A stretch of DNA of 38,249 nt from a virus. Made by a program: the position numbers and the translations under genes. The notes under the pieces are model-generated. The model was not told the DNA's origin. It did no database searches and worked only from the letters and a program-made list of their open reading frames with translations. The stretch spans positions 1 to 38,249 of the IMG/VR virus record IMGVR_UViG_3300010885_019590; one strand, written 5' to 3'. Below, piece after piece: positions 1 to 31,277 of the stretch. Positions within the stretch are counted from its first letter, which is position 1, and every line of letters begins with the position of its first letter.

Positions 1-758
1 GTAAGCGCCGCATTGTAGATGTTGACGATAATTATGTGTCGCCAGAGTTGGAAAAAGTTGTGCGCGAGTTCCACCCAGAGAATGCGGAGAAGTGGGCTGA
101 GCGTCAAGAGTCGCACAGGCAGATGGTTCGTGAGGCTGACGGGGTTATTTGTGCAACGTTCGCTTTGGCTGACGTGTACCGAAAGTTAAACAACAACATT
201 ATTGTTTGTGAGAACACGGTTGACCCGTCTGATTGGAATTATTCTTCATCAAAGAAACGTATAGTTGGCGTCGTCTTGTCACGTAACCACCTCAAAGACA
301 TTCCCCTTGTAGAAGAGGCGTGTCGAGCAGCGTCACTCATTAAGGGTGTTGAGGTGCAAGTTATCGGGCTAGACCCCGGTTGGGATTTTGCTTACACAAG
401 TTTTGGGTTTACTCCTAGCATTGCCTCGTATCGGCGCATCTTGTCGAGATGGAGTATCGGTTTGGCTCCTGTTATTGATAATGATGTTACTCGTTGTAAA
501 AGCGACTTGAAATGGTTAGAGTTTACAATGGCTAAGGCTGTGCTTGTGGCGAGCGATTCTCAGGCGTATCGGGGCGTTCCTGATGGTTGCATTCTTCGCG
601 CTTCGGACGCTAACGCGTTTAAAGATAGTGTTGTTTCTTTGTTGCGTGATGAGTCGAAACGTAAGAAGATGCTACGCGCTTCAACGTTGCACGTGAAACA
701 AAACCGGCTTGTTGGCAATGAGTCGTTGCGGAACAGGTACAATACACTATTAGTATGA
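1..758 (+). CDS. Glycosyltransferase, 3' part (GT4-like half of a GT2-GT4 fusion)
   Basis: This is the C-terminal part of the gene whose 5' part starts at 37316. The frame is open from the first base and matches the frame at the window end across the 123-bp overlap, giving about 522 residues in all. The part here resembles the nucleotide-sugar-binding half of GT-B family 4 enzymes: a beta strand with VDVDD, a VIGLDPGW segment, and the run SIGLAP followed by KSDLKWLEF and a VLVASD strand, which is the usual GT4 donor-site region. It would move a sugar from a nucleotide donor to an unknown acceptor, perhaps a virion or cell-surface component. It lies between head genes and the tail-neck genes. 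The internal ATG at 36 is not a start, because the frame is open upstream. Confidence 0.8.
   Translation, partial: KRRIVDVDDNYVSPELEKVVREFHPENAEKWAERQESHRQMVREADGVICATFALADVYRKLNNNIIVCENTVDPSDWNYSSSKKRIVGVVLSRNHLKDIPLVEEACRAASLIKGVEVQVIGLDPGWDFAYTSFGFTPSIASYRRILSRWSIGLAPVIDNDVTRCKSDLKWLEFTMAKAVLVASDSQAYRGVPDGCILRASDANAFKDSVVSLLRDESKRKKMLRASTLHVKQNRLVGNESLRNRYNTLLV
743..757 (+). promoter_or_regulatory. Leaderless promoter, TACACT-N6-ATG
   Basis: TACACT at 743-748 is followed by exactly six bases and the ATG at 755. No ribosome binding site precedes this ATG. The same spacing recurs before seven other genes in the window, which suggests transcription starts at the A of the ATG. Confidence 0.55.
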
Positions 759-1138
759 AAGTCATCGAACATCAGGCGTGGCGTCGCCCTATCCTTGCGC
801 ACGCAGAAGAGACGTACGACCTTGTTGCCGGAGAGCCCAAGCGTGCCATCATGTGGTACATCTATGGTGAGAACCAAGAGGAAGACCAGAAGCGGCTAGG
901 CCAAGGGCTTGCTTGTGGTGATTGTTTGAGCGTCTTCCCGGCTAAGCCAGCGATGGAGAATCTGCGCGTGTGGCGCACAATCTCACACGAATGGCAGCCT
1001 TTTCGCACGCCAGACGAAGTGCTTGCTCTGGTCGCTAAGGGTCAGTGTCCTACGTGTGGCGGCGAGGTATCTGCGGAAATGCACAACGCTATGCACCGTG
1101 GCCTTGACCCGCTTCGACCGAAAGGCTTGGATAGTTAA
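755..1138 (+). CDS. Small zinc-ribbon protein, unknown function
   Basis: A 127-residue protein that I do not recognise. Two CXXC pairs, CGDC near residue 53 and CPTC near residue 98, are spaced as in a zinc ribbon. Its start overlaps the end of the glycosyltransferase by four bases and its stop overlaps the next ATG (TAATG). The start codon sits six bases after a TANNNT element and has no Shine-Dalgarno sequence. Position at the head of the neck genes suggests a virion assembly or accessory role, which is inference only. Confidence 0.75.
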   Translation: MKVIEHQAWRRPILAHAEETYDLVAGEPKRAIMWYIYGENQEEDQKRLGQGLACGDCLSVFPAKPAMENLRVWRTISHEWQPFRTPDEVLALVAKGQCPTCGGEVSAEMHNAMHRGLDPLRPKGLDS

Positions 1139-1836
1139 TGGCTACGTTTGCCCAACTTAAATTGCGCGCAGAAAACCTTGCCCTTGCTTCTGACGATACG
1201 GAGGCTGGCGCGTGTGTTAATGATGTGCTAACAGACATTGTTGTTAGTGCGCAACTCAAAGTTACAATGGCAAACAAGGCATTGACTGGCGGACAGTCCG
1301 TCTACGATATTTCTGCTGACTTTGCAATCACAGACTTTGGCGCGCTTCAATACCTAGAATACTTGGCTCTTGGCGCGACATACTCGTATATTCTTGAGCC
1401 TATCGCTGGCGACGAATTGCTTGCCTTGAACGCGACAAATCCGATTGGCGCGACTCGTCAGTACGCTTTCCTTGGTTTGGATACGCTTCGCCTATGGCCT
1501 AACCCGCAGACAACGGGCGACATTCTTAAGGTGTATTACGCTCAAACGCCAACAGCGTTGGTGAACACTACGGATGTTCCTAGTGATATTCCCTCGCAGT
1601 GGCATTGGCTGATTACCATTGGCGCAGCCGCTCGTTTGGCTGATGCGGTTGGCGAGGATCAGAATCTTAGTAACGCTTTGGACGCTAAGTTTCAGAACGG
1701 CATGATTGCGTTCCAAAAGTTTATGACTCGCCGCTCGGGTCGCACTGCTCGTCGTATTCAGTTTGGTTATTTGCGCAACCCGCGTCGCCCGTTCCACGAT
1801 CCTTCGACGTACTACTCGTCCAGCCAGAGGAGTTAA
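1138..1836 (+). CDS. Head-tail adaptor (connector) protein
   Basis: A 232-residue, mostly helical protein. Helical segments near the start (from AQLKLRAENLAL), a central patch with LRLWPNP and VYYAQTP, and a basic Arg-rich tail are typical of the adaptor ring that binds under the portal of short-tailed phages (gp4/gp11-type proteins). The next gene looks like the nozzle, which is the usual order. Translation is probably coupled to the upstream gene through TAATG. The call rests on general sequence style and gene order, not on a catalytic motif. Confidence 0.6.
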   Translation: MATFAQLKLRAENLALASDDTEAGACVNDVLTDIVVSAQLKVTMANKALTGGQSVYDISADFAITDFGALQYLEYLALGATYSYILEPIAGDELLALNATNPIGATRQYAFLGLDTLRLWPNPQTTGDILKVYYAQTPTALVNTTDVPSDIPSQWHWLITIGAAARLADAVGEDQNLSNALDAKFQNGMIAFQKFMTRRSGRTARRIQFGYLRNPRRPFHDPSTYYSSSQRS

Positions 1837-1839
1837 TTC

Positions 1840-5687: not shown

Positions 5688-5702
5688 TAGACTAGCGTTA
5701 TG
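5688..5702 (+). promoter_or_regulatory. Leaderless extended -10 promoter, TGG-TAGACT-N6-ATG
   Basis: TAGACT at 5688-5693, preceded by TGG (an extended -10), is followed by six bases and the ATG at 5700. It sits in the 17-base gap after the previous stop. No Shine-Dalgarno is present. Confidence 0.6.
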
Positions 5703-7139: not shown

Positions 7140-7154
7140 TAGACTACAAGTATG
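7140..7154 (+). promoter_or_regulatory. Leaderless promoter, TAGACT-N6-ATG
   Basis: TAGACT at 7140-7145, six bases, then the ATG at 7152. It is identical in hexamer and spacing to the sites before 5700 and 31275 and lies in the 12-base gap between two virion genes. No Shine-Dalgarno is present. Confidence 0.6.
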
Positions 7155-13439: not shown

Positions 13440-13451
13440 TACCTTATATGA
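13410..13451 (+). CDS. Possible 13-residue leader peptide over the C-tracts
   Basis: ATG at 13410 opens a frame of 13 codons that runs through both C8 tracts (Pro-Pro-Gln-Thr-Pro-Pro) and ends in a TGA overlapping the ATG at 13448 (ATGA). AGGG at 13402-13405 is a weak ribosome binding site. It could couple translation to the hydrolase gene, or could be chance. Confidence 0.3.
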   Translation: MVMVPPQTPPYLI

Positions 13452-17573: not shown

Positions 17574-18229
17574 TTGTCGAAGACGAACACGGACCAGTCA
17601 CCATCAGCCGGGGAGCAACGATAGAAGACACAGCCATCATTATTGGGCCAGCATTCATTGGCGAAGACGCATACATCGGGCACGGTGCCGTTATTGGAGC
17701 ACCGCCCCAGTATCGTGGCGTCTACCCATCCCCAGTAACCGGCAAGCGTTTCCACAGGGGAGTACGCGTTGGCAACGATGCTTGTGTCAGAGAACTTGTA
17801 CAGATTCATCAAGGCATTCTTTTCGAAACGTATGTTGGGGACGACACGCTACTAATGGCGGGGTGTCACATTGGTCACGATAGTGAAATTGGAAGCAACT
17901 GTAGCCTCGCCCCATTCTCCTTGCTTGCGGGTCATACGATTCTTTGTGATGGTGTGACGTTCGGGCAGGGAGTGATTACGCACCCGTGGGTAATCGTTGG
18001 AGAACACGCCATGATTGGCTTAAACAGTGGGGTTCTTGACGATGTTTTGCCGTATCAGAAAGTTGTTGGTTCTCCCGCTAAGTTGATTGGCAAGAACACT
18101 GGCGCAATGGGCATTCGGAAAGGGTGGGATCTTCACGATCTTGACACGGAAGTGGTAAAGCGGTATGTTGCTGTTCGAGTACGGCGAGACAATAATAAGA
18201 AACTAATGAAGGAGTTGATGGAGCGATGA
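17570..18229 (+). CDS. LpxA-like left-handed beta-helix acyltransferase
   Basis: 219 residues with hexapeptide repeats ([LIV]-G-x4) over residues 10-160, and the LpxA-type landmarks: VIGAPPQ at 41-47, ACVRELVQIHQG at 71-82, LLMAGCHIGHD at 94-104 and LPYQKVVGSPA at 160-170. H100 and H103 match the histidine pair near the LpxA active site (H122 and H125 in the E. coli enzyme). LpxA transfers an acyl chain from acyl carrier protein to UDP-GlcNAc; relatives acylate amino sugars. The C-terminal helix is basic. Finding it in a phage recombination operon is odd. If the host is an actinobacterium there is no lipid A, so a different sugar substrate is more likely. Confidence 0.82.
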   Translation: MIVEDEHGPVTISRGATIEDTAIIIGPAFIGEDAYIGHGAVIGAPPQYRGVYPSPVTGKRFHRGVRVGNDACVRELVQIHQGILFETYVGDDTLLMAGCHIGHDSEIGSNCSLAPFSLLAGHTILCDGVTFGQGVITHPWVIVGEHAMIGLNSGVLDDVLPYQKVVGSPAKLIGKNTGAMGIRKGWDLHDLDTEVVKRYVAVRVRRDNNKKLMKELMER

Positions 18230-19068
18230 CGAACATCCCGAATCGAGAAGTAAGCGCATCCAAGTTCAACACAGCGTTCGGACGCGCGGGTTGCGGCATG
18301 AAGTTCTACTATCGTTACATTGAGAAGGTTCGCGGCACAGTAGGCGCAAGTCTCCTCGCCGGCATAGCGTTCGATCAGGCCACACGCGCGTACCACGATA
18401 GTCTCATTGGCGATAAGCCTGTTGAGGATTACATGGATGTGTTTGCGCGCGAGTGGGAAAACCCCAATGAAGAGAGTCGTGACGGGGAACTGATTGCTTA
18501 CGACTTGTCTGAAGCGCCCGTAGATATCCTTGATCGTGGCGCAACGGCACTAAGGGCGTATGTTGACTCTACTGCTGGCATGGTCCCCATCGACACACAA
18601 GTGTTTGTCGAGCGAGAGTTCGAAGAGACAGACGCCAAACTCATCGGCTACATCGACCTTATTGAAGAGGTTGACGGTGGCGTGTGCGTGACGGACGTGA
18701 AGAGTAGTTTGTCTGGCAGGAAAAAGTGGACAGAAGCAGAAGCCGCGCGCGACGCACAGTTGGGAATCTATAGCATCCTTGCCGATGGTGACGTAAGGGC
18801 TGTCGGCTGGAGGCACGCTCGGCTTGGTGGCAAGATCGAGGTGGGCGCAACGCATGTTGCTACGCCTAACCGGGACACGGTACTTAGTCGGATCAGTGGT
18901 TGGATGAAAGACCTTGAGCACTGGTGTACCACTGGAGACTTTGCGCCAACCGGGTTGGATCGGGATGCTTGGGTTTGTTCGGCTAAGTATTGCGACTATT
19001 ACAATCGTTGTCCGCATGGAGCGGCAACACAGACAGTCATTCCGATGACTATTGGAGGAAGAAAATGA
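18226..19068 (+). CDS. PD-(D/E)XK nuclease with Fe-S type cysteines (Cas4/RecB-like exonuclease)
   Basis: 280 residues. The nuclease core shows D144 in GYIDLI, D157-V-K159 as the (D/E)XK element, and Q178 with LGIY as the following QxxxY-type motif. C23 near the N-terminus and C251, C256, C262 at the C-terminus give the one-plus-three cysteine arrangement that holds a 4Fe-4S cluster in Cas4 and AddB nucleases. It would resect DNA ends for the RecT-like protein encoded just upstream. ATGA overlaps occur on both sides, with the acyltransferase before and SSB after. Confidence 0.8.
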   Translation: MTNIPNREVSASKFNTAFGRAGCGMKFYYRYIEKVRGTVGASLLAGIAFDQATRAYHDSLIGDKPVEDYMDVFAREWENPNEESRDGELIAYDLSEAPVDILDRGATALRAYVDSTAGMVPIDTQVFVEREFEETDAKLIGYIDLIEEVDGGVCVTDVKSSLSGRKKWTEAEAARDAQLGIYSILADGDVRAVGWRHARLGGKIEVGATHVATPNRDTVLSRISGWMKDLEHWCTTGDFAPTGLDRDAWVCSAKYCDYYNRCPHGAATQTVIPMTIGGRK

Positions 19069-19439
19069 GTAGCATGTTTCAAGGCACGATCATTGGTCGC
19101 CTGACGCAAGACCCGGAACAGAAAGTCTCGTCGAGCGGGACGACCTACACTCGTCTGCGCTTGGCTTGGAACCACAAGAAGGACGAGCCGGGATACATCG
19201 ACGCAACCGTATTCGGTAAGACGGCAGAAGTTGCTGCGACATACTTGAAGAAGGGCAGTCACATCTGTCTTGCTGGTGCGCGTATCGAGTGGCGACAGTG
19301 GGAGAAGGACGGCGCAAAGTTCAGTGGTCACTCTCTCGTTGGTGGCGACCTGATTATGCTTGGTAAGAAGGACGACGACCAGTCCGCACAGGCATCGATT
19401 CCTAATCCCGCCGCATCCGATGACGATATTCCCTTCTGA
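19065..19439 (+). CDS. ssb: Single-stranded DNA-binding protein
   Basis: 124 residues. An OB fold covers residues 1-105: GTIIGRLTQDPE, then TRLRLAWN, then ATVFGKTAE and KKGSHICLAGARIEW, all typical of bacterial and phage SSB. The acidic tail ends in DDDIPF, the tip that recruits SSB-interacting proteins such as host recombination and replication enzymes. GGAGGAAG lies seven bases upstream. It would protect single strands made by the adjacent nuclease and loaded with the RecT-like protein. Confidence 0.93.
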   Translation: MSSMFQGTIIGRLTQDPEQKVSSSGTTYTRLRLAWNHKKDEPGYIDATVFGKTAEVAATYLKKGSHICLAGARIEWRQWEKDGAKFSGHSLVGGDLIMLGKKDDDQSAQASIPNPAASDDDIPF

Positions 19440-19879
19440 TGCGGGCGACAATCCTTATTGTCATAGCGTGCATTATCTGCATAATTCTCGCCCTGTTTTC
19501 GCCAGAGTTCGCCATGCCATCGACAAGACCATCACCAGCCACTAGGAACGACACTCTTTACCCGCCCCACTACAAGACGTTCATTGCTATCGCCAAGTGT
19601 GAGCAGCCGTCTCGTAATGGTGGCGGGTGGCACGGCATTGCGTGGCACCAAGAATACAATTGGAGTTTTCGTGGCGGAATGGGAATGACTGGTTTGAATT
19701 GGAGCGACTTCAAACGCAAGGGACAGCCGGACAACATGGCTAAGGCTAGTCCGGTTGAACAATTGTGGGCTGCATGGCGACTCTATAAATGGGCAAACAA
19801 GACGTATCCGGGCAATGGGTACACGGCGTGGCTATGCAGTCCACTCGTCGGTTTCTCCGGAGAGGGGACGTGGAAATGA
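19439..19879 (+). CDS. Secreted Rpf-like / transglycosylase-like cell-wall enzyme
   Basis: 146 residues. Residues 3-22 form a hydrophobic signal or anchor. The rest resembles the lysozyme-like resuscitation-promoting-factor domain: IAKCEQ with candidate catalytic E55, a glycine-rich turn with FRGGMGMTG, then SPVEQLWAAWRLY and GYTAWLCS. C54 and C133 can form the usual disulfide. Such enzymes cleave the glycan backbone of peptidoglycan and are characteristic of actinobacteria and their phages. It is unusual for it to sit between ssb and an oxidoreductase gene instead of in the lysis block; an early or long-term effect on the host wall is conceivable. Confidence 0.7.
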   Translation: MRATILIVIACIICIILALFSPEFAMPSTRPSPATRNDTLYPPHYKTFIAIAKCEQPSRNGGGWHGIAWHQEYNWSFRGGMGMTGLNWSDFKRKGQPDNMAKASPVEQLWAAWRLYKWANKTYPGNGYTAWLCSPLVGFSGEGTWK

Positions 19880-20802
19880 GAGTCATCCTCGTTGGCAATG
19901 GTTACTTCGGTTCGCTGTATCGCAAGCGAATGATGAGTAACCCGGAGTTCAAGGTCGTCGGCATTGTCGAGCCGAACTACGAGAACTTCAAGGACTTGCG
20001 TGGCGCTACCATCGGGCACGATTACGAGACGCTAGCGAAGAACGTTGAGCATGATGCTGTTGTGATCGCCACGCCGCCGTCTATGCACCGTAGCGTCGCG
20101 TATGCGGCGATGCTGAATGGAAAGCACGTCTTGTGTGCAAAGCCGGGGGCGCTCTGTATGGAGGACGTGTACTTCTTACATGGCGTCGCTAACTCTGTAG
20201 GTGTTTTCTTTATGGTGGACTACACGTCACTCTGGTCGCCAGAAAGCGACTTCATAGACCAGCAGATTGATGCAATGGTCGCAACACCAACAAGCATGAT
20301 GAGTGCAAGATTCGTATCAACCCCAGCAAAACAAGAGGGCGCTATCTGGGACTTGCTATGCCACGACGTAGCCCTCTATCACTACCACTTCTACCACGAG
20401 CGCCCCACAAGCGTCGAGTGCGAGACTAAGGGGAACGACACGACGGCACTTATCATTTCTGATAAGCGCGAAGTGGCGTACATGAAAGCATCATACGAAT
20501 CTAAAAGTCCACAAAAGAACATCACAATTGGCTTAGACGTGTCGGGGGGCATGACGAATCCGTACGTGAAGTTGCACTGGAACCAAGAGCAACGCTTTGT
20601 ATCTGTCCAGTCGCAGGGCAGGTCTGTTGACTTCTACTTCAAGCACGACCCCGACCCAATCACACTAGCCCTCAATCGTTTGCTGAAGGAAAGGTATATG
20701 GCAGTTGAACACCTTAGGCGTCACGCTTATGTGACAAGTATCCTGCACGCCATGCAACACTCCGCCAACAATGGTGGCCTTCGCGTTCGGCTCGGCTCGT
20801 GA
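19876..20802 (+). CDS. Gfo/Idh/MocA-family NAD(P)-dependent oxidoreductase
   Basis: 308 residues. The N-terminal Rossmann fold has GNGYFG at 7-12, VVIATPP at 62-68 and the CAKPG motif with K89-P90, equivalent to the EKP loop of this family. The C-terminal domain has WDLLCHDV with D158 and H162, in the position of the catalytic D...H pair. These enzymes oxidise sugars, often at C3 of a nucleotide sugar. The sequence is shortened compared with typical members of about 330-350 residues. ATGA overlap with the Rpf-like gene sets the start. With the LpxA-like gene nearby it suggests amino-sugar modification. Confidence 0.8.
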   Translation: MRVILVGNGYFGSLYRKRMMSNPEFKVVGIVEPNYENFKDLRGATIGHDYETLAKNVEHDAVVIATPPSMHRSVAYAAMLNGKHVLCAKPGALCMEDVYFLHGVANSVGVFFMVDYTSLWSPESDFIDQQIDAMVATPTSMMSARFVSTPAKQEGAIWDLLCHDVALYHYHFYHERPTSVECETKGNDTTALIISDKREVAYMKASYESKSPQKNITIGLDVSGGMTNPYVKLHWNQEQRFVSVQSQGRSVDFYFKHDPDPITLALNRLLKERYMAVEHLRRHAYVTSILHAMQHSANNGGLRVRLGS

Positions 20803-20927
20803 AGGTGTGGTGTGATACGTGTAACGCGGAAACATTATTGAACGCACGCAAAGTGTGCCTCTGGTGTGAAACGAAACTAACTACTAAGAACATTACAAAG
20901 GCTAAGATTGAGGATGCGCAACGATGA
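20799..20927 (+). CDS. Tiny zinc-ribbon protein, 42 aa
   Basis: GTG start overlapping the preceding stop and TGA overlapping the next ATG. The product has CDTC near the N-terminus and CLWC 14 residues later, enough to bind one zinc, followed by a Lys/Thr-rich tail. It resembles minimal zinc ribbons seen in phage early operons. Function unknown. Confidence 0.6.
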   Translation: MKVWCDTCNAETLLNARKVCLWCETKLTTKNITKAKIEDAQR

Positions 20928-21163
20928 GTGAATGGAAAGATATTAATGCGGAACTACAAGGCGCTGTCTTGGCTGCGGGAAATATGGTTACGGGTCTTGT
21001 TGTTGACGCTGACGAACTTCGTGTTCGTTACGAGGTTGGTAATGCGCAGCATAAAGATGCGTGGGAGGATTGGAATAAGAGTCGCTTCTTGCGAGAGGCG
21101 CACGAGGAGGTACTTGACTTGATTTTGTACCTCGCAATGATGCGGGTGGTGCACGGTGAGTGA
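20924..21163 (+). CDS. Small helical protein, MazG/dUTPase-like signature
   Basis: 79 residues. The C-terminal helix with REAHEEVLDLILYLAMM resembles the EExxD metal-binding helix of all-alpha NTP pyrophosphohydrolases (MazG/dimeric dUTPase group). The rest is too short to hold the full four-helix site, so it may be a shortened or accessory member. It overlaps both neighbours. Confidence 0.5.
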   Translation: MSEWKDINAELQGAVLAAGNMVTGLVVDADELRVRYEVGNAQHKDAWEDWNKSRFLREAHEEVLDLILYLAMMRVVHGE

Positions 21164-21365
21164 GCCGGTCGATTATTGGGCAAAAGCACACACGGTTGCG
21201 GCTGAGCACCTAGAGCAATGCCACCTATTTTGCACGGAAGAAAGCGAAGACGACCCGTCTTGCGCGCCTTTCTGTGGTTGTACCACCTGCGAAGTACGAG
21301 AAGTTTTGTATGCTGCGTACGATTATTTAGAAAAACACTTTGCCGAACAGAAAGAACAAGCATGA
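21156..21365 (+). CDS. Cysteine-rich small protein, 69 aa
   Basis: GTG start eight bases inside the previous gene. Between residues 23 and 46 are six cysteines (CHLFC, then SCAPFCGCTTC), followed by a helix. It probably binds metal. No family recognised. Confidence 0.6.
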   Translation: MSEPVDYWAKAHTVAAEHLEQCHLFCTEESEDDPSCAPFCGCTTCEVREVLYAAYDYLEKHFAEQKEQA

Positions 21366-21835
21366 GCAAACTTGCAGTAGGACTAGACGTAAGCCCTCTC
21401 CGTATCGGTTGGGCTGTCGTAACAGACGAACTAGAACCAACAGCACATGGCGTAATCCTATTCAAACCAAAAGAATGGGTCACTCCGGGAATGCGCGCAG
21501 AAGCAATGGAAGACGCGCTCGGAGACTTCAAGATCGACCACGTTGGCTCAGAAGCAGTGTTCGTTGGCATCAACAAACTAGGCAGCATTAGGGCAGCAAT
21601 GGCACTAGGACAAGTCGAAAGCATTGCCGACTACTTGTGGCCCGACTCTGACCAGAAAGTCCTTACCGCTACACAGTGGCGAGCAGCGTGTGGTATCAAA
21701 CAGGGCGGCAAAGAACCCGTCATGGAGTGGTCTACAAACATTTGCAAACAATACGAAATAGACGCACCGGAGAATCAAGATGCCGCAGACGCTATCGCCA
21801 TCGCATACGCAACAATTATCTGGCACCGTGGATGA
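21362..21835 (+). CDS. RuvC-like Holliday junction resolvase
   Basis: 157 residues with an RNase H-like fold. D9 in VGLDVSPLRIGWAV, E64 after a hydrophobic strand (SEAVFVG), then the helix LGSIRAAMALGQVESI, and D140/D143 in NQDAADAIAIA make the four acidic residues of RuvC-type resolvases. It would cut four-way junctions or branched replicating DNA before packaging. It fits with the annealing protein, nuclease and SSB upstream. ATGA overlap sets the start. Confidence 0.85.
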   Translation: MSKLAVGLDVSPLRIGWAVVTDELEPTAHGVILFKPKEWVTPGMRAEAMEDALGDFKIDHVGSEAVFVGINKLGSIRAAMALGQVESIADYLWPDSDQKVLTATQWRAACGIKQGGKEPVMEWSTNICKQYEIDAPENQDAADAIAIAYATIIWHRG

Positions 21836-22340
21836 GCACTGGCTCGACCGAGCAATAGAAGACAAACTCGGCGAAGTCATTGACAAGTATCGCGCACAAG
21901 GACAACCAGTCAACAGTGTTGGAGCGTTACGCATCCGCGTTGCCGCAGACATCAACGGGCTGCGCGGCGGCGCGGGCTGGGCAGCACTAAAACACAGGTA
22001 CGATCCGACACCAACCGTTGTCCTAGCGTGGTGCACGGCGTGCGACAAGCCACTTAGCAGAGGCGGCGTGTCTGCGTGGCTAGAGGACACGCGCGGATGG
22101 GTGTTCTGCTCAATCGAATGCCAACAAGACGACAAGCGCCACCCAATCCCATTCTCAGAGTTCAAGAGGAGAGTGAGAGATAAAGGCGAAGTGTCATCGA
22201 ACAGGCTCGACATCGTACAGGGACAACTCGTACTAGGCGAAAAGATCACAGTCACATGGGATCAAATCAAGAACCAAGGCAACCCCATTGATGATTCGAT
22301 TAGCATCATCAAGCCTGATGATGAGATTATCTGGGACTAG
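21828..22340 (+). CDS. Hypothetical zinc-binding protein
   Basis: 170 residues from GTG 21828, which overlaps the resolvase end by eight bases; an ATG at 21780 lies deeper in the resolvase and is less likely. The N-terminal 60 residues are helical. CTACDKPL near residue 70 and FCSIEC about 25 residues on form a treble-clef-like four-cysteine site. The C-terminal part is charged with a short acidic end. Function unknown; DNA or nucleotide metabolism by context. Confidence 0.65.
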   Translation: MDEHWLDRAIEDKLGEVIDKYRAQGQPVNSVGALRIRVAADINGLRGGAGWAALKHRYDPTPTVVLAWCTACDKPLSRGGVSAWLEDTRGWVFCSIECQQDDKRHPIPFSEFKRRVRDKGEVSSNRLDIVQGQLVLGEKITVTWDQIKNQGNPIDDSISIIKPDDEIIWD

Positions 22341-22349
22341 AACGTGTAG

Positions 22350-22364
22350 CATTTGTCACAAATG
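22350..22364. promoter_or_regulatory. Perfect palindrome, possible operator
   Basis: CATTTGT-C-ACAAATG is a 15-base perfect inverted repeat placed in a rare 44-base gap of an otherwise overlapping operon, just before a 25-residue membrane peptide gene. It could be a repressor site or a small hairpin. Confidence 0.45.
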
Positions 22365-22384
22365 GAGAATGGAAGGACAACGTA

Positions 22385-22462
22385 ATGCGAGACTTGATTT
22401 CTTACGGAATACTTGTAATACTCATCTTGTTCCTCACAACTAAAGCAGGAGGCAGAACATGA
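22385..22462 (+). CDS. 25-residue single-pass membrane peptide
   Basis: AAGGA lies seven bases upstream of the ATG. The product is one hydrophobic helix (ISYGILVILILFLTT) with a short basic tail. The TGA overlaps the next ATG. Such peptides can modulate host membrane proteins or lysis, but nothing here identifies a role. Confidence 0.5.
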   Translation: MRDLISYGILVILILFLTTKAGGRT

Positions 22463-22653
22463 CTGATTGGCTAAAAGAAGCAACAGTGTCGCTCGACAAA
22501 GCAATGGCACAATGGGAAGAGTTAGAGTGGATGGAAGGGTTGCCGGGTGGCGCGCGGTGTAGTACGGAAAAGCGCGTTCGCTGCGCTCTTCTTATAGCGT
22601 ATGAAGAGGGGCTAAATAACGCAAACCGGCAGCACAAGGAGAAGAACGCATGA
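22459..22653 (+). CDS. Hypothetical 64-residue helical protein
   Basis: AGGAGG lies upstream of the ATG and the ends overlap neighbours. Charged amphipathic helices, two cysteines, no known motif. Confidence 0.6.
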   Translation: MTDWLKEATVSLDKAMAQWEELEWMEGLPGGARCSTEKRVRCALLIAYEEGLNNANRQHKEKNA

Positions 22654-22940
22654 GCACCATCGTTGAACCATTGAGCCAATCGTCCTTGTATCGCACCATG
22701 TGGCGCAGCATCATGCACGCCACAGGTAACGAAGAAGCAACTGACGCAATCATGCTCAGCATCATCGACACCCACCCACACTTGTCTGAGGTGTGGGACA
22801 ACAACACTTGCCGATCCTGCAAAGCAATCCTCAGCGGACTCGACAAAGCAGAAGCATCGCCGTACTGTGAGTGTTGCCGCAGCATCGAAGACCCACCAGA
22901 ATACTACGACCGCAACATCAAAATGTACGGCGGCGAATAA
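22650..22940 (+). CDS. Hypothetical 96-residue zinc-ribbon protein
   Basis: The N-terminal half is helical. The second half has CRSC and CECC separated by about 15 residues, which should bind zinc. ATGA and TAATG overlaps tie it to both neighbours. Confidence 0.6.
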   Translation: MSTIVEPLSQSSLYRTMWRSIMHATGNEEATDAIMLSIIDTHPHLSEVWDNNTCRSCKAILSGLDKAEASPYCECCRSIEDPPEYYDRNIKMYGGE

Positions 22941-23065
22941 TGCTTAAGAAAACCATCGGCAAAAACAAGCAAGCCGCAGCCCTACAACGACGACTAGACC
23001 GCGCACACCTAAAAAGCACACGGGCTGCCGCTAGAGCACTGCAACCTAAACAACGCTGGTACTAA
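22940..23065 (+). CDS. Basic 41-residue peptide
   Basis: ATG overlaps the previous stop (TAATG). The product is very basic (Lys, Arg, Gln, Ala) and helical, suited to nucleic acid binding. The DNA here is strongly A/C-rich, as in the next gene. Confidence 0.5.
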   Translation: MLKKTIGKNKQAAALQRRLDRAHLKSTRAAARALQPKQRWY

Positions 23066-23068
23066 GCC

Positions 23069-23488
23069 GTGATCCGCACACGCCCCAAAGACACGGCAAG
23101 CGAAAACGAAATAGCCGAACTAATGGAAACCAAATGGAACTGCCAAGTCCACCGCACCGGATACCTCGACGCATGGGACTACACCGGCACCCAAAACGGA
23201 CGCACCGTCTTCATCGCAGAACTCAAAACCCGCAACAACCCCAGCACCCAATACCCCACCATCTACCTATCAGCACACAAATGGTTCCGCCTACTACAAG
23301 CATCAACCGGCCTAGACGTACCCGCAATCTTCATAGCACGCTTCACCAACACCATTCTCTACCAGCCCATCAACAAAATAGACGCTCGAAAAAGCACTAT
23401 GGCTGGACGCACCGACCGCACGGGCGCACCGAACGATTTGGAGTTGATGATCCTTGTTCCCATTAGTGACATGAGTTGCTTAGCGTGA
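23069..23488 (+). CDS. PD-(D/E)XK-type nuclease-like protein
   Basis: 139 residues starting with GTG. NEIAELMETKW is the leading helix, D37 in AWDYTGTQNG and E51-L-K53 in FIAELKTR form the D...ExK core, and a strand with IYLSAHKWFRL follows, as in VRR-NUC and Hjc-like folds. It could be a junction or structure-specific nuclease, or an inactive relative. It is the last gene of the recombination run. DNA composition is conspicuously A/C-rich, unlike the G/T-rich virion genes. Confidence 0.65.
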   Translation: MIRTRPKDTASENEIAELMETKWNCQVHRTGYLDAWDYTGTQNGRTVFIAELKTRNNPSTQYPTIYLSAHKWFRLLQASTGLDVPAIFIARFTNTILYQPINKIDARKSTMAGRTDRTGAPNDLELMILVPISDMSCLA

Positions 23489-23492
23489 GGAC

Positions 23493-23546
23493 TTGACGCG
23501 GCGCGTCGGCTAGGCGTATGCTTTCCCTGTAATCGAAATAAGGGAG
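23493..23546 (+). promoter_or_regulatory. Sigma70-type promoter and SD
   Basis: TTGACG at 23493-23498, an 18-base spacer, and TATGCT at 23517-23522 form a standard promoter. AGGGAG just downstream precedes the ATG at 23553. This is the clearest -35/-10 pair in the window and begins the small-gene block. Confidence 0.7.
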
Positions 23547-23552
23547 CACGTC

Positions 23553-24077
23553 ATGGGTACGGAACGGGTTACGTGGTACAGTGAGCGAACGGACGCACGC
23601 GCCTACGCATTGGAAGCGTGGGCATACGCAATGGCGCGGGGGGAATCGTTTGACGCATTCGATGCGGCGCACGATTACGCGGACGGTTGCAGTGCGGTTA
23701 TCTACTATTATCGTGCGCGGCAACTCTTCGATGATTCTAGCGACGTCTACAACCGTGAGGATGAGGTTTCCGACTATGTTGCCGCTGACGCATCGATCAA
23801 TGATCGAATTGCCGTGTGTGCTTATCTGGCGGTGCGCGATGCGTTTACGGAAGCGTGCGAAGAGTTGGCCGCTATTGAGGTGCCAACCGTGGCGCTACGT
23901 TGGCGCGATGGTGCCGGACTATTGGAAGTGGCTACGGAGTATGACGCCGAGCAGATTTTAGATAATCGATCTAGTCATCAGGCGCAACTCTACCCGGACG
24001 CGCCAACGGTAGACGAGTTGGAATCGGAACTAATCAGGCTAGGCACCATTGCGCTAGATCTGCGGGTCTCGGCATGA
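23553..24077 (+). CDS. Hypothetical acidic protein, 174 aa
   Basis: First gene of the block behind a strong promoter. Helical and acidic, with aromatic-rich segments (AYALEAWAYAMARGESFDAF and IYYYRARQLF). No cysteine cluster or membrane segment. Higher G+C than the virion genes. Acidic small early proteins of phages often bind host enzymes or mimic DNA, but there is no motif to claim that. Confidence 0.65.
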   Translation: MGTERVTWYSERTDARAYALEAWAYAMARGESFDAFDAAHDYADGCSAVIYYYRARQLFDDSSDVYNREDEVSDYVAADASINDRIAVCAYLAVRDAFTEACEELAAIEVPTVALRWRDGAGLLEVATEYDAEQILDNRSSHQAQLYPDAPTVDELESELIRLGTIALDLRVSA

Positions 24078-24433
24078 CCACCACTCATATATATTGGTAC
24101 TCGCCCGCCGATGGTTCGTGGGGGGGGTGCCCGGTGGAAGACTTGCTAGTGGTTGATTGCGACGCATTGTCGCTGATCGAACGCGCGATGATGGATCGCG
24201 CATTCGATAAAGATAATCAGGATTTATTCCGGTTTGCCATCGCCCGGGCTCATGATCGAATAAAAAAAGGAAAGGCAAAGACAATGACTAACGCCGAATG
24301 GGAAGCGCATCTGGTAATGGTTGCCTTGTGTCGTTCTCTAGGCTGGGACATCGAAACGGACAACGGCGGCAACCACGTTATCTATCCCGGGATCTGTGAC
24401 CCGTACTATTCGGAGGGCAGCGACAATGTCTGA
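24074..24433 (+). CDS. Hypothetical 119-residue protein, possibly two cistrons
   Basis: ATGA overlap with the preceding gene. The N-terminal part (IYWYSPADGSW) is followed by a run of eight G at 24120-24127. After a run of seven A (about 24260), AAAGG precedes an in-frame ATG at 24284, which could start a shorter 49-residue product (AEWEAHLVMVALCRSLGWDIE). The frame is intact as read. Function unknown. Confidence 0.55.
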   Translation: MTTTHIYWYSPADGSWGGCPVEDLLVVDCDALSLIERAMMDRAFDKDNQDLFRFAIARAHDRIKKGKAKTMTNAEWEAHLVMVALCRSLGWDIETDNGGNHVIYPGICDPYYSEGSDNV

Positions 24434-24677
24434 CGACATCGAAGATATGTGGAATCGATGCGACTGGATAGCGCCCGCTAACCATAAGCGCCCCGGCTTA
24501 TGCGACTACGTGCGTACGCTGCTAGACGTTGCAGAATCGCAACGGTTTATGTTGCATAGCCGCGAACGCTACGCCCTCATTTGTGTTGCCGATGAGGTTA
24601 TCGGAATGATGGAACGCGCGTTAGGGGCTGACGCCGTAGCAGAGGCAGAATCTTACCTACAGAATGGTGGTAAATAA
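24426..24677 (+). CDS. Hypothetical 83-residue protein
   Basis: Start overlaps the previous stop by eight bases. Acidic N-terminus, then helices (YALICVADEVIGMMERAL). No known motif. Its stop overlaps the following ATG (TAATG). Confidence 0.55.
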   Translation: MSDDIEDMWNRCDWIAPANHKRPGLCDYVRTLLDVAESQRFMLHSRERYALICVADEVIGMMERALGADAVAEAESYLQNGGK

Positions 24678-24877
24678 TGAGCAACTACAGGACGCACGCG
24701 GGAGACGTTTACAGCGAACGCGTAGACGGTAGCGGCGCTATCCGCGTCAGTGGTGAGGACGCGGAAGGCTACCGCGTAGAGATTGTCTATTACGGCTACA
24801 CGCGGCGCGAATCGGTAGCCATGTTTCGTCAGGATTCGCCCACGTACTGGCACCGCTTGACGGGTGGTGCAGTATGA
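24677..24877 (+). CDS. Hypothetical 66-residue beta-rich protein
   Basis: Short strands with many charged and aromatic residues (YRVEIVYYGYTRRESV). Overlaps both neighbours. No family recognised. Confidence 0.55.
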   Translation: MSNYRTHAGDVYSERVDGSGAIRVSGEDAEGYRVEIVYYGYTRRESVAMFRQDSPTYWHRLTGGAV

Positions 24878-25110
24878 CGCGCCGAAAACTATTGGTACCA
24901 ATATGGTGCGACGTGGAACCCGTGCGCCTAATCGTAGGTGTGCGAAACTGCCCGCCACACTACCGGAATACCATTGGCGACATTCTCGCCACGATGCACG
25001 CGAATGAGCCGGGTTGGGACTCGCTGAGCGTATGCGATCAGTACCCCGCCCGGTTTGGTAAAACCGTCACGCTTCGAAGCGTGCTAACTATGGAAGGCGG
25101 CGCACAATGA
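24874..25110 (+). CDS. Hypothetical 78-residue protein
   Basis: ATGA overlap at both ends. Mixed alpha/beta with a central helix (TIGDILATMHANEPGW). No motif recognised. Confidence 0.55.
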   Translation: MTRRKLLVPIWCDVEPVRLIVGVRNCPPHYRNTIGDILATMHANEPGWDSLSVCDQYPARFGKTVTLRSVLTMEGGAQ

Positions 25111-25193
25111 CGCGCGCAGAATTATTGAGAACGTTACAGCCCGGAACGATAGTCACAATGACGGAGCGAATCGGGGAATGGGTGACGGCATGA
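25107..25193 (+). CDS. 28-residue peptide
   Basis: A short frame with ATGA overlaps at both ends (RAELLRTLQPG and a beta-like end). The overlap pattern supports translation; function unknown. Confidence 0.4.
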   Translation: MTRAELLRTLQPGTIVTMTERIGEWVTA

Positions 25194-25435
25194 ACGCGGG
25201 CGAATCGTTCGCAGACTGGTTGGCCGTCATCGTGGCGTCAGACGATCCCGCAAACGGTGGAGCAGGTCTGCTTACCCTCACAGACTGCGCGAAGTGCGAC
25301 GGCTACGGCATCGTGGAACACTCGCACCGTAGCGGGATGCGGCTAGTGCCCTGCCCTAAGTGCAACGGGAAAGGGGAACCGGCTAGCGTGGCGAACGTGA
25401 CAGCGAACGCCAACGAAACGGAGACCCAATGCTAG
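25190..25435 (+). CDS. DnaJ-type zinc-finger small protein (paralog A)
   Basis: 81 residues from the ATG overlapping the previous stop. Two CXXCXGXG units, CAKCDGYG (C33, C36) and CPKCNGKG (C55, C58), match the zinc hairpins of DnaJ without the J domain. The first cysteines of the two units are 22 residues apart, and V-E-x-S-H follows the first. A minus-strand gene at 26044-26238 has the same spacing and VE-x-SH, so the two are probably diverged copies. Confidence 0.65.
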   Translation: MNAGESFADWLAVIVASDDPANGGAGLLTLTDCAKCDGYGIVEHSHRSGMRLVPCPKCNGKGEPASVANVTANANETETQC

Positions 25436-25566
25436 CCCCACTGATCTACCTCACCACCGCCGGCCTACTGGCTTGCCTCTGCCTAGTCGTCGCGCAGGTT
25501 GTGGAATCCCGGGATTCGGATAGGGAAGCGGCGCGCGCGTGGACTGACTACCTAGACCGCCACTAG
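25429..25566 (+). CDS. 45-residue single-pass membrane protein
   Basis: ATG lies inside the end of the zinc-finger gene. A hydrophobic helix covers residues 4-24 (LTTAGLLACLCLVVA), followed by a charged amphipathic tail. It is the last plus-strand gene before the terminator. It could be a superinfection-exclusion or lysis-type peptide; no motif decides. Confidence 0.5.
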   Translation: MLAPLIYLTTAGLLACLCLVVAQVVESRDSDREAARAWTDYLDRH

Positions 25567-25583
25567 CACCCGCACCACCTAGT

Positions 25584-25614
25584 CCGCCCCGCAACGATTG
25601 GGGGCGGGCTTTCT
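25584..25614 (+). terminator. Rho-independent terminator of the small-gene block
   Basis: CCGCCCC at 25584-25590 pairs with GGGGCGG at 25601-25607 around a 10-base loop, followed by GCTTTCT. It ends the plus-strand run just before the convergent minus-strand genes. Confidence 0.75.
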
Positions 25615-25634
25615 CGTGCCATGATCGCGCCCAC

Positions 25635-25671
25635 GAAAAAGCCCCCCCGCCCAACGTGGCACGAGGGGGCT
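25635..25671 (-). terminator. Rho-independent terminator of the minus-strand operon
   Basis: Read on the minus strand, AGCCCCC (25671-25665) pairs with GGGGGCT (25646-25640), followed by a run of T (25640-25636). The loop holds a small CGTG/CACG hairpin. It stops the three-gene minus-strand operon, 14 bases past its last stop. Confidence 0.75.
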
Positions 25672-25685
25672 AGATTCGCCGGGGG

Positions 25686-25880
25686 CTAGTCGTCAGAACA
25701 ATTCATGCACTTGGCGTCAGCGCCGCAAGCGTACGCCGTCCGGTAGTGCTCACAAGACTCGCACACGTCACCGTCGTCCGTCGCGGACATTTCGGCGGCG
25801 TCCGCCATTGCCGAATACTCAGCCGAGCGCGCATCCGCCCGCTGAGTCCATTCCGCCAGTGTTTCGCGCGTGCGGCTCAT
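25686..25880 (-). CDS. Cysteine-rich small protein, 64 aa
   Basis: Last gene of the minus-strand trio. The first half is a charged helix with many Ala; the second has CESC, then C and CMNC, a likely zinc site. Its ATG overlaps the stop of the gene before it (ATGA). Function unknown. Confidence 0.6.
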   Translation of the reverse strand: MSRTRETLAEWTQRADARSAEYSAMADAAEMSATDDGDVCESCEHYRTAYACGADAKCMNCSDD

Positions 25881-26047
25881 GCCTTCACCCCCTCAGGGCG
25901 ATAGTCGCTGGGCCAATAGCCGAGCGCGTCGAAGTGCCGGTTTGCGTTCTGCTTTTCCGCCCACTTGATGAGGTCGGCTTCCTGTTTTGCGACGTACGCT
26001 TCGCGGGCTTCGCGGGCTTCGCGGGCTTCGGTGTCGGCGGGGATCAT
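25877..26047 (-). CDS. 56-residue protein with REA tandem repeats
   Basis: ATG overlaps the stop of the upstream gene. The N-terminus carries three Arg-Glu-Ala units encoded by a 9-bp tandem repeat, continuing into a charged helix (YVAKQEADLIKWAEKQNA). It ends in GVKA, as does the upstream protein. Function unknown. Confidence 0.55.
   Translation of the reverse strand: MIPADTEAREAREAREAYVAKQEADLIKWAEKQNANRHFDALGYWPSDYRPEGVKA
26000..26030. repeat. 9-bp tandem repeat, about three and a half copies
   Basis: TTCGCGGGC repeats in tandem, encoding Arg-Glu-Ala units on the minus strand. It is a candidate for copy-number variation. Confidence 0.75.
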
Positions 26048-26238
26048 GCCTTCACCCCCGCAAGCCACGCCGCAAACGCCGGGGAAAAATGCTCCCGCGT
26101 ATCCACCAGACCGCGCCCATCACAATCGCCGCACTCCATGAGGTCATCAGCCTCAGGGTGCGAGCACTCCACAAAGCCCTTCCCCGCACAGCGCTCGCAG
26201 TAGGCGAACCCTTCGATCGTGTTCCGTGTTCCGCTCAT
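26044..26238 (-). CDS. DnaJ-type zinc-finger small protein (paralog B)
   Basis: First gene of the minus-strand trio, 64 residues. CERCAGKG (C14, C17) and CGDCDGRG (C36, C39) form two zinc hairpins of DnaJ type, with the 22-residue spacing and VE-x-SH of the plus-strand paralog at 25190. A GGGAGG site lies eight bases before the ATG inside a small inverted repeat. The C-terminus (FAAWLAGVKA) is helical. Longer in-frame starts upstream lack a binding site. Confidence 0.65.
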   Translation of the reverse strand: MSGTRNTIEGFAYCERCAGKGFVECSHPEADDLMECGDCDGRGLVDTREHFSPAFAAWLAGVKA

Positions 26239-26241
26239 GAC

Positions 26242-26255
26242 TGACCTCCCGGTCA
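26242..26255 (-). promoter_or_regulatory. Hairpin that includes the SD of the minus-strand operon
   Basis: On the minus strand TGACC-GGGA-GGTCA forms a 5-bp stem with a 4-base loop. The ribosome binding sequence GGGAGG spans loop and stem, which could limit translation of the first minus-strand gene. Confidence 0.4.
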
Positions 26256-26561
26256 CGGGCACGCCAGCGGCGCACCCCAGTAGTTTGATTACACCTACAA
26301 CACTACAGCACCAACACGCCACACGCAACACAAAGAGACACACGAGGAAAGCCCGGCTGTCTTGTGGGGGTACGAGTGTTCGCGCGATGCGATGCGGTGG
26401 GCGTGCCGCGAATCGTCGACCCTGCACCTAGCCACCCCGCACGCACCTCATCAACACACCACACGCAGTGACCCAACCCCCCCGCCGCGCGACGCGACCA
26501 CCGTAGACGTAGGGTTTGTTTTGTTGTGGGTATGTTTTCTATATGGGCTTGTTCGGGTGGT

Positions 26562-26641
26562 TTGATGAATCTTTAGATGATTTTCATCAGACACATTTGC
26601 TGTAGTAGATGTGGTTTTCTGCTCCCCCCCTAGTCCCCCCC
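26562..26641 (+). promoter_or_regulatory. Composite element copy 2: hairpin plus paired C7 tracts
   Basis: TGATGAA (26563-26569) and TTCATCA form an inverted repeat with a 13-base loop, and ATCTTTA lies at its left arm and loop. Two runs of seven C (26624-26630 and 26635-26641) follow, separated by TAGT. From TTGATGA to the first C run is 62 bases here and 63 in copy 1 at 13358. It precedes the packaging module. Confidence 0.6.
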
Positions 26642-26722
26642 TCGTGGGGCCGCGTTTTGGGTGCGGTGTGTTCTTGTTGCGACTTGTCTGGTTGTCGCTG
26701 GCAGCAATCCGTTGGTGTGCTT

Positions 26723-26754
26723 TGCACGATATTTCGTGTGTATGCACGATATTT
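26723..26754. repeat. Pair of TGCACGATATTT repeats, possible operators
   Basis: TGCACGATATTT occurs at 26723-26734 and 26743-26754, exactly 20 bases apart (about two helical turns). The first copy extends to a palindrome, CACGA-TATT-TCGTG. This suits a dimeric regulator binding in tandem about 100 bases upstream of the packaging genes. Confidence 0.55.
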
Positions 26755-26831
26755 GGTGAGGGTTGGGCATTGCTGCGCCGATGCCCCTCTGACGGGCGAT
26801 CTCCGCTTGTGGGGCGGGTTGCTTCTGATTG

Positions 26832-26846
26832 TATCATGTTGTTATG
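26832..26846 (+). promoter_or_regulatory. Leaderless promoter, TATCAT-N6-ATG
   Basis: TATCAT at 26832-26837, six bases, then the ATG at 26844. No ribosome binding site. First promoter of the packaging module. Confidence 0.6.
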
Positions 26847-27014
26847 GGTGATGATGATTTTTATGGGTGGTCGGAGTGGGTGTTTCGTTGTGTGTTTGAG
26901 GATTCTCCTCGTCGTGTGTTGCGTGTCTTTGCTGCGTGCGAGTATGATGCGTGGGTGTCGTTTAGTTTGTTGACTGGTATTAGGGTTAATCTTGAAGGGT
27001 TGGAGCACTGGTGA
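26844..27014 (+). CDS. Small acidic-start protein before TerS, 56 aa
   Basis: MGDDD start followed by an aromatic-rich helix (WSEWVFRCVFE) and a second helix. Its TGA overlaps the GTG of the TerS-like gene. The leaderless promoter fixes the start. Unknown function; packaging-related by position. Confidence 0.6.
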   Translation: MGDDDFYGWSEWVFRCVFEDSPRRVLRVFAACEYDAWVSFSLLTGIRVNLEGLEHW

Positions 27015-27579: not shown

Positions 27580-27594
27580 TACGATTCTTGTATG
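27580..27594 (+). promoter_or_regulatory. Leaderless extended -10 promoter, TGA-TACGAT-N6-ATG
   Basis: TACGAT at 27580-27585 with upstream TG, six bases, then the ATG at 27592. No Shine-Dalgarno near the start. Confidence 0.55.
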
Positions 27595-29672: not shown

Positions 29673-29687
29673 TATAGTGTTCGTATG
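29673..29687 (+). promoter_or_regulatory. Leaderless promoter, TATAGT-N6-ATG
   Basis: TATAGT at 29673-29678, six bases, then the ATG at 29685, directly after the terL stop. Confidence 0.6.
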
Positions 29688-30556: not shown

Positions 30557-30571
30557 TAGGATAATGGCATG
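30557..30571 (+). promoter_or_regulatory. Leaderless extended -10 promoter, TGA-TAGGAT-N6-ATG
   Basis: TAGGAT at 30557-30562, with TG one base upstream, six bases, then the ATG at 30569. It begins right after the Dps stop. Confidence 0.6.
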
Positions 30572-30985
30572 AGTGTTCCTCCAAGCATGATGGGTGCCGG
30601 TCCAATGATTCCGCCGCCCCCAACGGGCGCTCCTATGGCTCCTCCGATGGGTGCGCCCATGGGTGCTCCTGCTCCGGGCGGAATGGTTCCTCCTGCTGTT
30701 GCAGCGCTTCCGGGTGTTAGCCAGTTGGCGCAGGCTCAGACGATGCAGATGATGGATCATCAGCGTCAGATGCAGATCATGCAAGAGGAAATGCAGAAGC
30801 AGATCATGATGCTTGTTGCGTCGCTTCCTACGGCTAATCCGGCTGGCGAGGCGGCTGTGTCTACACCGATGAGTCCAATGATGAGTGGTAGCAATACGGA
30901 CACGGGTGGCGCTCCTGCTACTCCGGCTATGCCGATGCCCCCCACTCCTCCTAGTGTGATGGGTGGTGCTCCTAGTGCCCACTAA
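30569..30985 (+). CDS. Met/Pro/Gln-rich low-complexity protein
   Basis: 138 residues. N-terminal Pro/Met/Gly/Ala repeats (PMGAPMGAP), a central Met/Gln helix (QMMDHQRQMQIMQEEMQKQ), then another Met/Pro tail. Met content is exceptional. No fold is recognisable. Position among virion genes suggests a structural or scaffolding part; metal or oxidant handling next to the Dps-like protein is a looser idea. Confidence 0.6.
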   Translation: MSVPPSMMGAGPMIPPPPTGAPMAPPMGAPMGAPAPGGMVPPAVAALPGVSQLAQAQTMQMMDHQRQMQIMQEEMQKQIMMLVASLPTANPAGEAAVSTPMSPMMSGSNTDTGGAPATPAMPMPPTPPSVMGGAPSAH

Positions 30986-31250
30986 TAACTTTAGTCAGAA
31001 TGGTAACGCTACTCGCGCGCCGTATACTCGTGCTGTTGCAGTTACGCCTAGTGACACGGTTGATCTTACTGAGGTTTCGCGTGGACTTAATGTTCATAGT
31101 GCGCTTGCTTCTTGTCCAGTAAAAGTTATGATGCAGGGCGATACGGTTGCTGTGATTCTTCAGTTGCAGACCGGGTTTATTTATCCGTTGCGAGTGTCGC
31201 GTGTGTATGCGACTGGTACTACCGCGACGACTGTTGTTGCTCTCTACTAG
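30975..31250 (+). CDS. Small beta-rich virion protein
   Basis: 91 residues from GTG 30975, which has GGGTGG eight bases upstream; GTGs at 30963 and 30966 are also in frame. Strand-rich sequence (VAVTPSDTVDL, KVMMQGDTVAVIL, YPLRVSRVYATG) resembles small decoration or fibre-base proteins common in this genomic position. Overlaps the Met-rich gene by 11 bases. Confidence 0.55.
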   Translation: MPTNNFSQNGNATRAPYTRAVAVTPSDTVDLTEVSRGLNVHSALASCPVKVMMQGDTVAVILQLQTGFIYPLRVSRVYATGTTATTVVALY

Positions 31251-31262
31251 GTGTTGGGGTGG

Positions 31263-31277
31263 TAGACTAATTTCATG
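31263..31277 (+). promoter_or_regulatory. Leaderless extended -10 promoter, TGG-TAGACT-N6-ATG
   Basis: TGG-TAGACT (hexamer 31263-31268), six bases, then the ATG at 31275. Hexamer and TGG are identical to the site before 5700. Confidence 0.65.

What the first reader, a model, noticed from the sequence alone, without database searches (positions are those of the whole stretch)
743..31277. Eight genes share TANNNT, exactly six bases, then ATG: a leaderless promoter network
Seen directly before the ATGs at 755, 5700, 7152, 26844, 27592, 29685, 30569 and 31275: TACACT, TAGACT, TAGACT, TATCAT, TACGAT, TATAGT, TAGGAT, TAGACT, each followed by six bases and ATG, none with a Shine-Dalgarno. Four have a TGN extension before the hexamer. 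Leaderless mRNAs starting at the ATG are well known in actinobacteria with this -10 form. The exact spacing in eight cases is far from random. It means individual virion genes have private promoters and points to the host group.
Basis: partly seen in the sequence, partly recalled or inferred. Interest (0 to 1): 0.72.

Follow-up and report, generated by a model that had tools for sequence, protein, structure and literature searches.

The report
Leaderless late-gene promoters in uncultured phage
Several packaging and particle genes of an uncultured phage, and of its relatives, carry a promoter box exactly six (sometimes seven) bases before the start codon, so their messages probably begin at the start codon itself, as is common in actinobacteria; the replication genes use ordinary ribosome-binding sites instead.

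Summary
All eight motifs are present at the stated places. In the window alone the excess at spacer 6 is real but rests partly on start choice: 8 of 52 starts, binomial P 8e-8; 5 of 49, P 2e-4, without three weakly anchored starts. Motif-blind gene calling gives 5 against a mean of 1.5, maximum 3, at other offsets. Relatives decide it. Among 1504 homology-supported genes, near-copies collapsed, ATG starts give 42 clusters at spacer 6 and 22 at 7, against 4-19 elsewhere. The signal stays at the same genes while flanks diverge: orthologues of 5700, 10 of 10; 7152, 7 of 7; 29685, 11 of 14; 30569, 9 of 13; 31275, 5 of 10; also 4337, 11 of 12, though not in the window. Weak: 755, 26844, 27592. Consensus-like sites at spacer 6 start with ATG or GTG, never TTG (0 of 59; controls 104 of 334). 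No -35 was detected; G at -14 is enriched. Best reading: -35-less SigA-type promoters giving leaderless late mRNAs in an actinobacterial host. Leaderless starts are known; this conserved late-arc set is a new variant. 5' ends are unmapped.

The parts
743..748 (+). TACACT, 6 nt before ATG 755 (127 aa); lies inside the end of the preceding ORF; weak case
   Evidence: kept in the four closest relatives and as TACCGT in one more; the 16 other orthologues with an aligned start codon lack TANNNT here
5688..5693 (+). TAGACT with TGG before it, 6 nt before ATG 5700 (479 aa)
   Evidence: 10 of 10 independent orthologues keep TANNNT at spacer 6
7140..7145 (+). TAGACT, 6 nt before ATG 7152 (2050 aa), directly after the preceding stop codon
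   Evidence: 7 of 7 independent orthologues (TAGAAT, TATACT, TAGACT); intergenic gap 12
26832..26837 (+). TATCAT, 6 nt before ATG 26844 (56 aa, upstream of terminase small subunit); moderate case
   Evidence: five independent orthologues keep TANNNT at spacer 6 or 7 but with poor boxes (TATCAT, TATCTT, TATCGT, TAGTTT)
27580..27585 (+). TACGAT with TGA before it, 6 nt before ATG 27592 (150 aa); not testable
   Evidence: homologue in one locus only (L004, a near-identical contig)
29673..29678 (+). TATAGT, 6 nt before ATG 29685 (63 aa)
   Evidence: 11 of 14 independent orthologues at spacer 6 or 7; intergenic gap 13
30557..30562 (+). TAGGAT with TGA before it (stop codon of the preceding gene), 6 nt before ATG 30569 (138 aa)
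   Evidence: 9 of 13 (TAGGAT at 6 or TACACT at 7); gap 12
31263..31268 (+). TAGACT with TGG before it, 6 nt before ATG 31275 (187 aa)
   Evidence: 5 of 10 independent; 19 of 26 orthologues with an aligned start codon
4337..4594 (+). 85-aa gene: start overlaps the preceding stop in the window, but TATACT at spacer 6 or 7 in relatives (turnover of the promoter)
   Evidence: 11 of 12 independent orthologues
13397..26851 (+). lysis and DNA-metabolism block without the box; SD-led or coupled starts
   Evidence: 0 of 30 starts with TANNNT at spacer 6, 12 with an SD core
14392..15129 (+). endolysin (PG_binding_1 + CHAP), host clue

Best explanation
The boxes are -10 elements of host-type (SigA/sigma-70) promoters without a recognisable -35, sometimes helped by a TGN or a G at -14, placed so that transcription starts on the A or G of the start codon. 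The resulting mRNAs have no 5' leader (or one base, where the spacer is seven), and ribosomes start on the 5'-terminal ATG or GTG. The phage uses them inside the packaging and virion arc, in several cases in a 12-13 base gap that holds little else, while its lysis and replication block uses leadered, SD-led or coupled starts. Shown: position, conservation, start-codon bias, lack of a -35, split by gene block. Inferred: that they are promoters, that the 5' ends lie at the start codon, that the host is an actinobacterium and that its own RNA polymerase reads them.
For: Window: 8 of 52 starts. Relatives: 42 clusters at spacer 6 and 22 at 7 against 4-19 at the other 23 spacers, ATG starts. One search, independent orthologues with TANNNT at spacer 6 or 7: 10/10 (5700), 7/7 (7152), 11/12 (4337), 11/14 (29685), 9/13 (30569), 5/10 (31275). 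Bases not fixed by the search are biased at 63 spacer-6 sites: A at box position 4 in 43, G two bases before the box in 45; TGN 13 of 63 against 3 of 135 controls; -35 matches of 4 or more 12 of 63 against 17 of 135. Start codons at consensus-like spacer-6 sites 36 ATG, 23 GTG, 0 TTG of 59, controls 145/85/104 of 334; TTG fails and ATG or GTG suffices at the 5' end in mycobacteria (PMC4633059, passages). M. tuberculosis promoters likewise show TANNNT without a -35 (PMC3898074, passages). Block split: 0 of 30 against 8 of 23, Fisher P 0.0006 (the 23 include ORF 36, a gene fragment). Eight isolate phages tested the same way: strict boxes at spacer 6 in 0-1 genes each. Host: endolysin matches.
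Against: No transcript data. The strict hexamer set was chosen after seeing the data. Motif-blind gene calling in the window gives only 5 against a maximum of 3 elsewhere. 755 and 27592 lack comparative support and 26844 has poor boxes. Spacer 7 is also used, and there 3 of 17 strict sites start with TTG. Part of the counts of the 26829 and 29876 groups comes from conserved coding sequence (internal codons), not promoters. One more distant relative (54% MCP, 45303_94) has no excess (1 strict site in 80 genes). TAGGAT could serve as a weak SD.
Confidence: 0.8

Rival explanations
1. The boxes are read by RNA polymerase altered by a phage factor (a late sigma or sigma-appropriation protein, as in T4 late transcription, where a -10-like element alone suffices); leaderless output is then part of a late switch.
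For: No -35 enrichment; boxes confined to the late arc, 0 of 30 starts in the other block.
Against: No sigma factor, RNA polymerase or T4-type late gene among the proteins scanned; the box also fits plain actinobacterial SigA promoters, which lack a -35 motif in M. tuberculosis. The T4 comparison is recalled.
Confidence: 0.12
2. The boxes are promoters but the mRNAs carry very short leaders of one to a few bases, so initiation is only near-leaderless.
For: 22 clusters at spacer 7; in relatives of 755 a TATACT lies 11 bases before the ATG (read).
Against: Spacer 6 is the main peak, and strict spacer-6 sites show no TTG.
Confidence: 0.15
3. Chance: short intergenic gaps and nearby stop codons rich in TA give TANNNT at -12.
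For: Raw ATG scan unimpressive; motif-blind gene call weak in the window alone.
Against: Peak only at 6-7, same genes in diverged relatives, biased free positions, no TTG.
Confidence: 0.03
4. The box is an RNA signal (processing site or ribosome-binding element) on a long late transcript rather than a promoter.
For: The accepted genes all point the same way and could be one operon.
Against: The TANNNT form, its G at -14 and its spacing match promoter -10 elements.
Confidence: 0.05

Closest known systems
TA-led (leaderless) genes of Actinobacteria and Deinococcus-Thermus (PMC3160421)
   Same: TANNNT about 12 bases before the start, no SD, over 20% of genes in these phyla (passages)
   Different: Those are cellular genes; here the signal is confined to one arc of a phage genome and kept at the same genes across relatives
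Mycobacterium tuberculosis leaderless promoters (PMC3898074) and the ATG/GTG rule (PMC4633059)
   Same: TANNNT without -35; ATG or GTG only (passages)
   Different: TGN before the box in 7% there, 13 of 63 here; mapped there, only predicted here
Cluster O mycobacteriophages such as Corndog (PMC4351075)
   Same: SigA-like promoters predicted to give leaderless phage mRNAs (passage)
   Different: A few promoters (PL1, PR2, PL2); here several genes in series within the late arc. Corndog DNA was not read (not held)
T4 late promoters (recalled, no call)
   Same: -10-like element without -35, late genes
   Different: Different box; no T4-type late sigma found here

Membership tests
Leaderless (TA-led) genes | TANNNT peaking about 12 bases before the start codon | tested here: met
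Leaderless (TA-led) genes | No Shine-Dalgarno before the start | tested here: met
   7 of 8; AGGA inside the box of 30569; 8 of 59 strict sites score as SD; I take these to be AGGA inside TAGGAT, which the call does not itemise
Leaderless (TA-led) genes | Start codon ATG or GTG, not TTG | tested here: met
   0 TTG of 59 at spacer 6; but 3 TTG of 17 at spacer 7
Leaderless (TA-led) genes | Transcript 5' end at the start codon | not testable with these tools
   needs 5'-end mapping
Extended -10 sigma-70 promoters | TGN directly before the box | tested here: inconclusive
   enriched (13 of 63 against 3 of 135) but a minority
Canonical sigma-70 promoters | TTGACA-like -35 at 15-19 bases | tested here: not met
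   no excess; bipartite promoters no commoner than in shuffles (7 against 10.8; 14 against 15.2)
T4-type late promoters | Phage-encoded late sigma | tested here: inconclusive
   none among proteins scanned; not every small ORF was scanned and distant ones can be missed

The most novel reading that the evidence does not exclude
A phage group divides its genome by mode of translation initiation: replication and lysis genes are SD-led, while many packaging and virion genes are leaderless from -35-less promoters only about 12 bases long, so that a late change in the host ribosome or polymerase favouring leaderless mRNA would switch the virion programme on.
Probability: 0.2. Interest if true: 0.75.

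Novelty: new variant of a known kind. Interest (0 to 1): 0.5.

Why it matters
It shows by comparison alone that phages can carry gene-by-gene leaderless promoters in their late region, gives a sequence rule (box, six or seven bases, ATG or GTG) for correcting start codons in such phages, and offers a host clue for uncultured phages. Seven answered paper searches (open-licence PMC papers only) led me to predicted leaderless phage transcripts in two mycobacteriophage studies (PMC4351075, PMC11373665; passages) but to no such conserved set; most listed papers were seen only as listings.

Tried and rejected
Raw ATG count over the window: not decisive. Search for relatives of the 5700 protein in viral contigs: 19 pattern matches, none confirmed. 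Host by MCP in bacterial genomes: 352 pattern matches, none confirmed. Host by endolysin in bacterial genomes: 28 matches, one confirmed, 31% identical, a Patulibacter MAG, weak. Near-DNA search of bases 1-25000 in phage records: none; bases 25001-38249 were not sent. TerL, MCP, portal and exonuclease matches in isolate phages are distant and of mixed hosts, so they say nothing on the host; 34445 had none. A canonical -35 was sought and rejected. The box before GTG 26955, 17 of 23, was rejected as coding: it sits inside the 26829-27014 frame and leaves 19-20 residues. ORF 36-758 was first counted as a gene and dropped, because relatives show it is the end of a 521-524 aa gene cut by the window ends.

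Full report
What the window is. It is a virus record of 38,249 bases, 52% G+C. Its ends carry an exact direct repeat of 123 bases, so it is probably a complete genome of 38,126 bases cut at an arbitrary point; the cut falls inside a gene that is 521-524 residues long in relatives. Every gene I accept is on the plus strand. Read across the matching ends the order is: terminase (27011, 28091), portal (32691), major capsid (35424), tail and virion genes (36-13304), endolysin (14392), exonuclease, RecT-like, SSB and RuvC-like genes (15159-22340), small genes, terminase again. No isolate phage is close: the protein matches are all under 60% identical.

The observation. With 52 gene starts, eight have TANNNT at spacer 6 where the background rate predicts 0.6 (P 8.5e-8); if I remove 26844 and 29685, whose starts I chose at the box, and 27592, which has a homologue in one contig only, five of 49 remain (P 1.8e-4). 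Gene calling that ignores the box finds 5 against a mean of 1.48 and a maximum of 3 at the other offsets. So the window alone is suggestive rather than conclusive.

Relatives. Scans with TerL, MCP and the exonuclease gave 45, 27 and 10 loci, and pieces of longer records were added. From these I took ORFs of 50 residues or more with a match of at most 92% identity in another contig, 1504 in all, overlapping loci included, and collapsed near-identical upstream regions (8 or fewer differences in 40). For ATG starts the number of clusters with TANNNT is 42 at spacer 6, 22 at spacer 7 and 4-19 at the other 23 spacers; the reversed motif gives 20 at spacer 6 and 2-22 overall. With ten -10-like hexamers, chosen after seeing the data, the counts are 34, 10 and 0-6.

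The signal belongs to particular genes. Per orthologue group, independent sequences with TANNNT at spacer 6 or 7: 5700, 10 of 10; 7152, 7 of 7; 4337, 11 of 12; 29685, 11 of 14; 30569, 9 of 13; 31275, 5 of 10; 31842, 4 of 13; 3912, 3 of 11; 755, 2 of 8; portal 2 of 17; MCP 1 of 12; TerL 0 of 17; 34445 0 of 11; 36669 0 of 12. The six best groups total 53 of 66, with about 3 of 66 per other offset; they were picked afterwards. My sums over: the 24 groups from 14356 to 25566 give 5 of 136; the late arc (36-13304 and 26829-37313) gives 83 of 255, of which some in the 26829 and 29876 groups come from conserved coding sequence; the two groups at 13397 and 14092 (3 of 11) and the groups between 25808 and 26851 (0 of 7) are in neither sum. 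The exchange of boxes is telling: TAGACT, TAGGAT and TACACT replace each other at 31275, TAGACT, TAGAAT and TATACT at 7152, and 30569 has either TAGGAT at six or TACACT at seven. At 4337 relatives have TATACT where the window has an overlapping start.

Promoter form. At 63 independent spacer-6 sites the positions that the search left free are biased: A at box position 4 (43 of 63), little T at position 5, G two bases before the box (45 of 63); TGN occurs in 13 of 63 against 3 of 135 sites at control spacers 10-20. The best -35 match in reach is no better than in controls, and bipartite sigma-70 matches are no commoner than in shuffles. In three of the eight cases the gap between the preceding stop and the ATG is 12-13 bases (7152, 29685, 30569), so box and spacer fill it. 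Some of the G at -14 may come from TAG stop codons of the preceding gene (seen).

Translation. At consensus-like spacer-6 sites the start codons are 36 ATG, 23 GTG and no TTG of 59, against 104 TTG of 334 at control spacers 9-24. That is the rule found with reporters in mycobacteria: ATG or GTG at the 5' end is enough, TTG fails (PMC4633059, passages). At spacer 7 three of 17 are TTG. In the window 12 of 30 starts of the lysis and replication block have an SD core and none has the box; in the rest 8 of 23 have the box and 5 an SD core, the latter including 30569, whose AGGA lies in its box.

Controls. The same motif-blind count in phages phiC31, Molivia, Bbif-1, xhp1, T7, A-4L, CRP-810 and BFK20 (up to 40 kb each) gives strict boxes at spacer 6 in 0-1 genes. 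Six longer relatives give 2-6; the relative with a 63% MCP gives 6; the one with a 54% MCP gives 1. The trait thus follows this group and fades further out. Five of the eight controls are phages of actinobacteria (Streptomyces, Arthrobacter, Bifidobacterium, Actinomyces, Corynebacterium-Brevibacterium), so it is not a property of all actinophages.

Host. Leaderless genes are commonest in Actinobacteria and Deinococcus-Thermus (PMC3160421, passages). The endolysin matches five phage records: three of Actinomyces phages, one of a Bifidobacterium phage, one uncultured; the one bacterial-genome match is a Patulibacter MAG, by recall also an actinobacterium. I put an actinobacterial host at about 0.7.

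Verdict. The mechanism is known; its repeated use in a phage late arc, kept through sequence turnover, is the new part. 5' ends have not been mapped.

Noticed in passing
1-123 and 38127-38249: Exact 123-base direct repeat of the ends: the record is probably a complete, circularly mapping genome, and ORF 36-758 is only the end of a gene cut by the ends.
   Followed up: partly
36604-36637: Strong hairpin (15 pairs) just after the major capsid gene. A stable hairpin follows the capsid gene in all 26 relatives printed, with changed stem sequences, even in those with 54% and 31% capsid identity; it may set capsid mRNA level or stability.
   Followed up: partly
29876-30553: C-terminal ferritin-like (Dps-type) domain in a protein encoded between packaging and portal genes.
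   Followed up: no
19870-20799: GFO/IDH/MocA-type oxidoreductase amid replication genes, present in ten relatives at 36-76% identity.
   Followed up: no
17570-18226: Hexapeptide-repeat transferase found in few relatives, an apparent cargo gene.
   Followed up: no
27592-28041: 150-aa gene without family match and with a homologue only in L004, inserted between the terminase subunits with its own box.
   Followed up: no
about 13420-13445 and 26630-26655: Paired runs of seven or eight C lie at both borders of the SD-led block (seen in the sequences); meaning unknown.
   Followed up: no
25190-25432: Small cysteine-rich zinc-binding protein matching the DnaJ central domain and, more weakly, anti-TRAP.
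   Followed up: no
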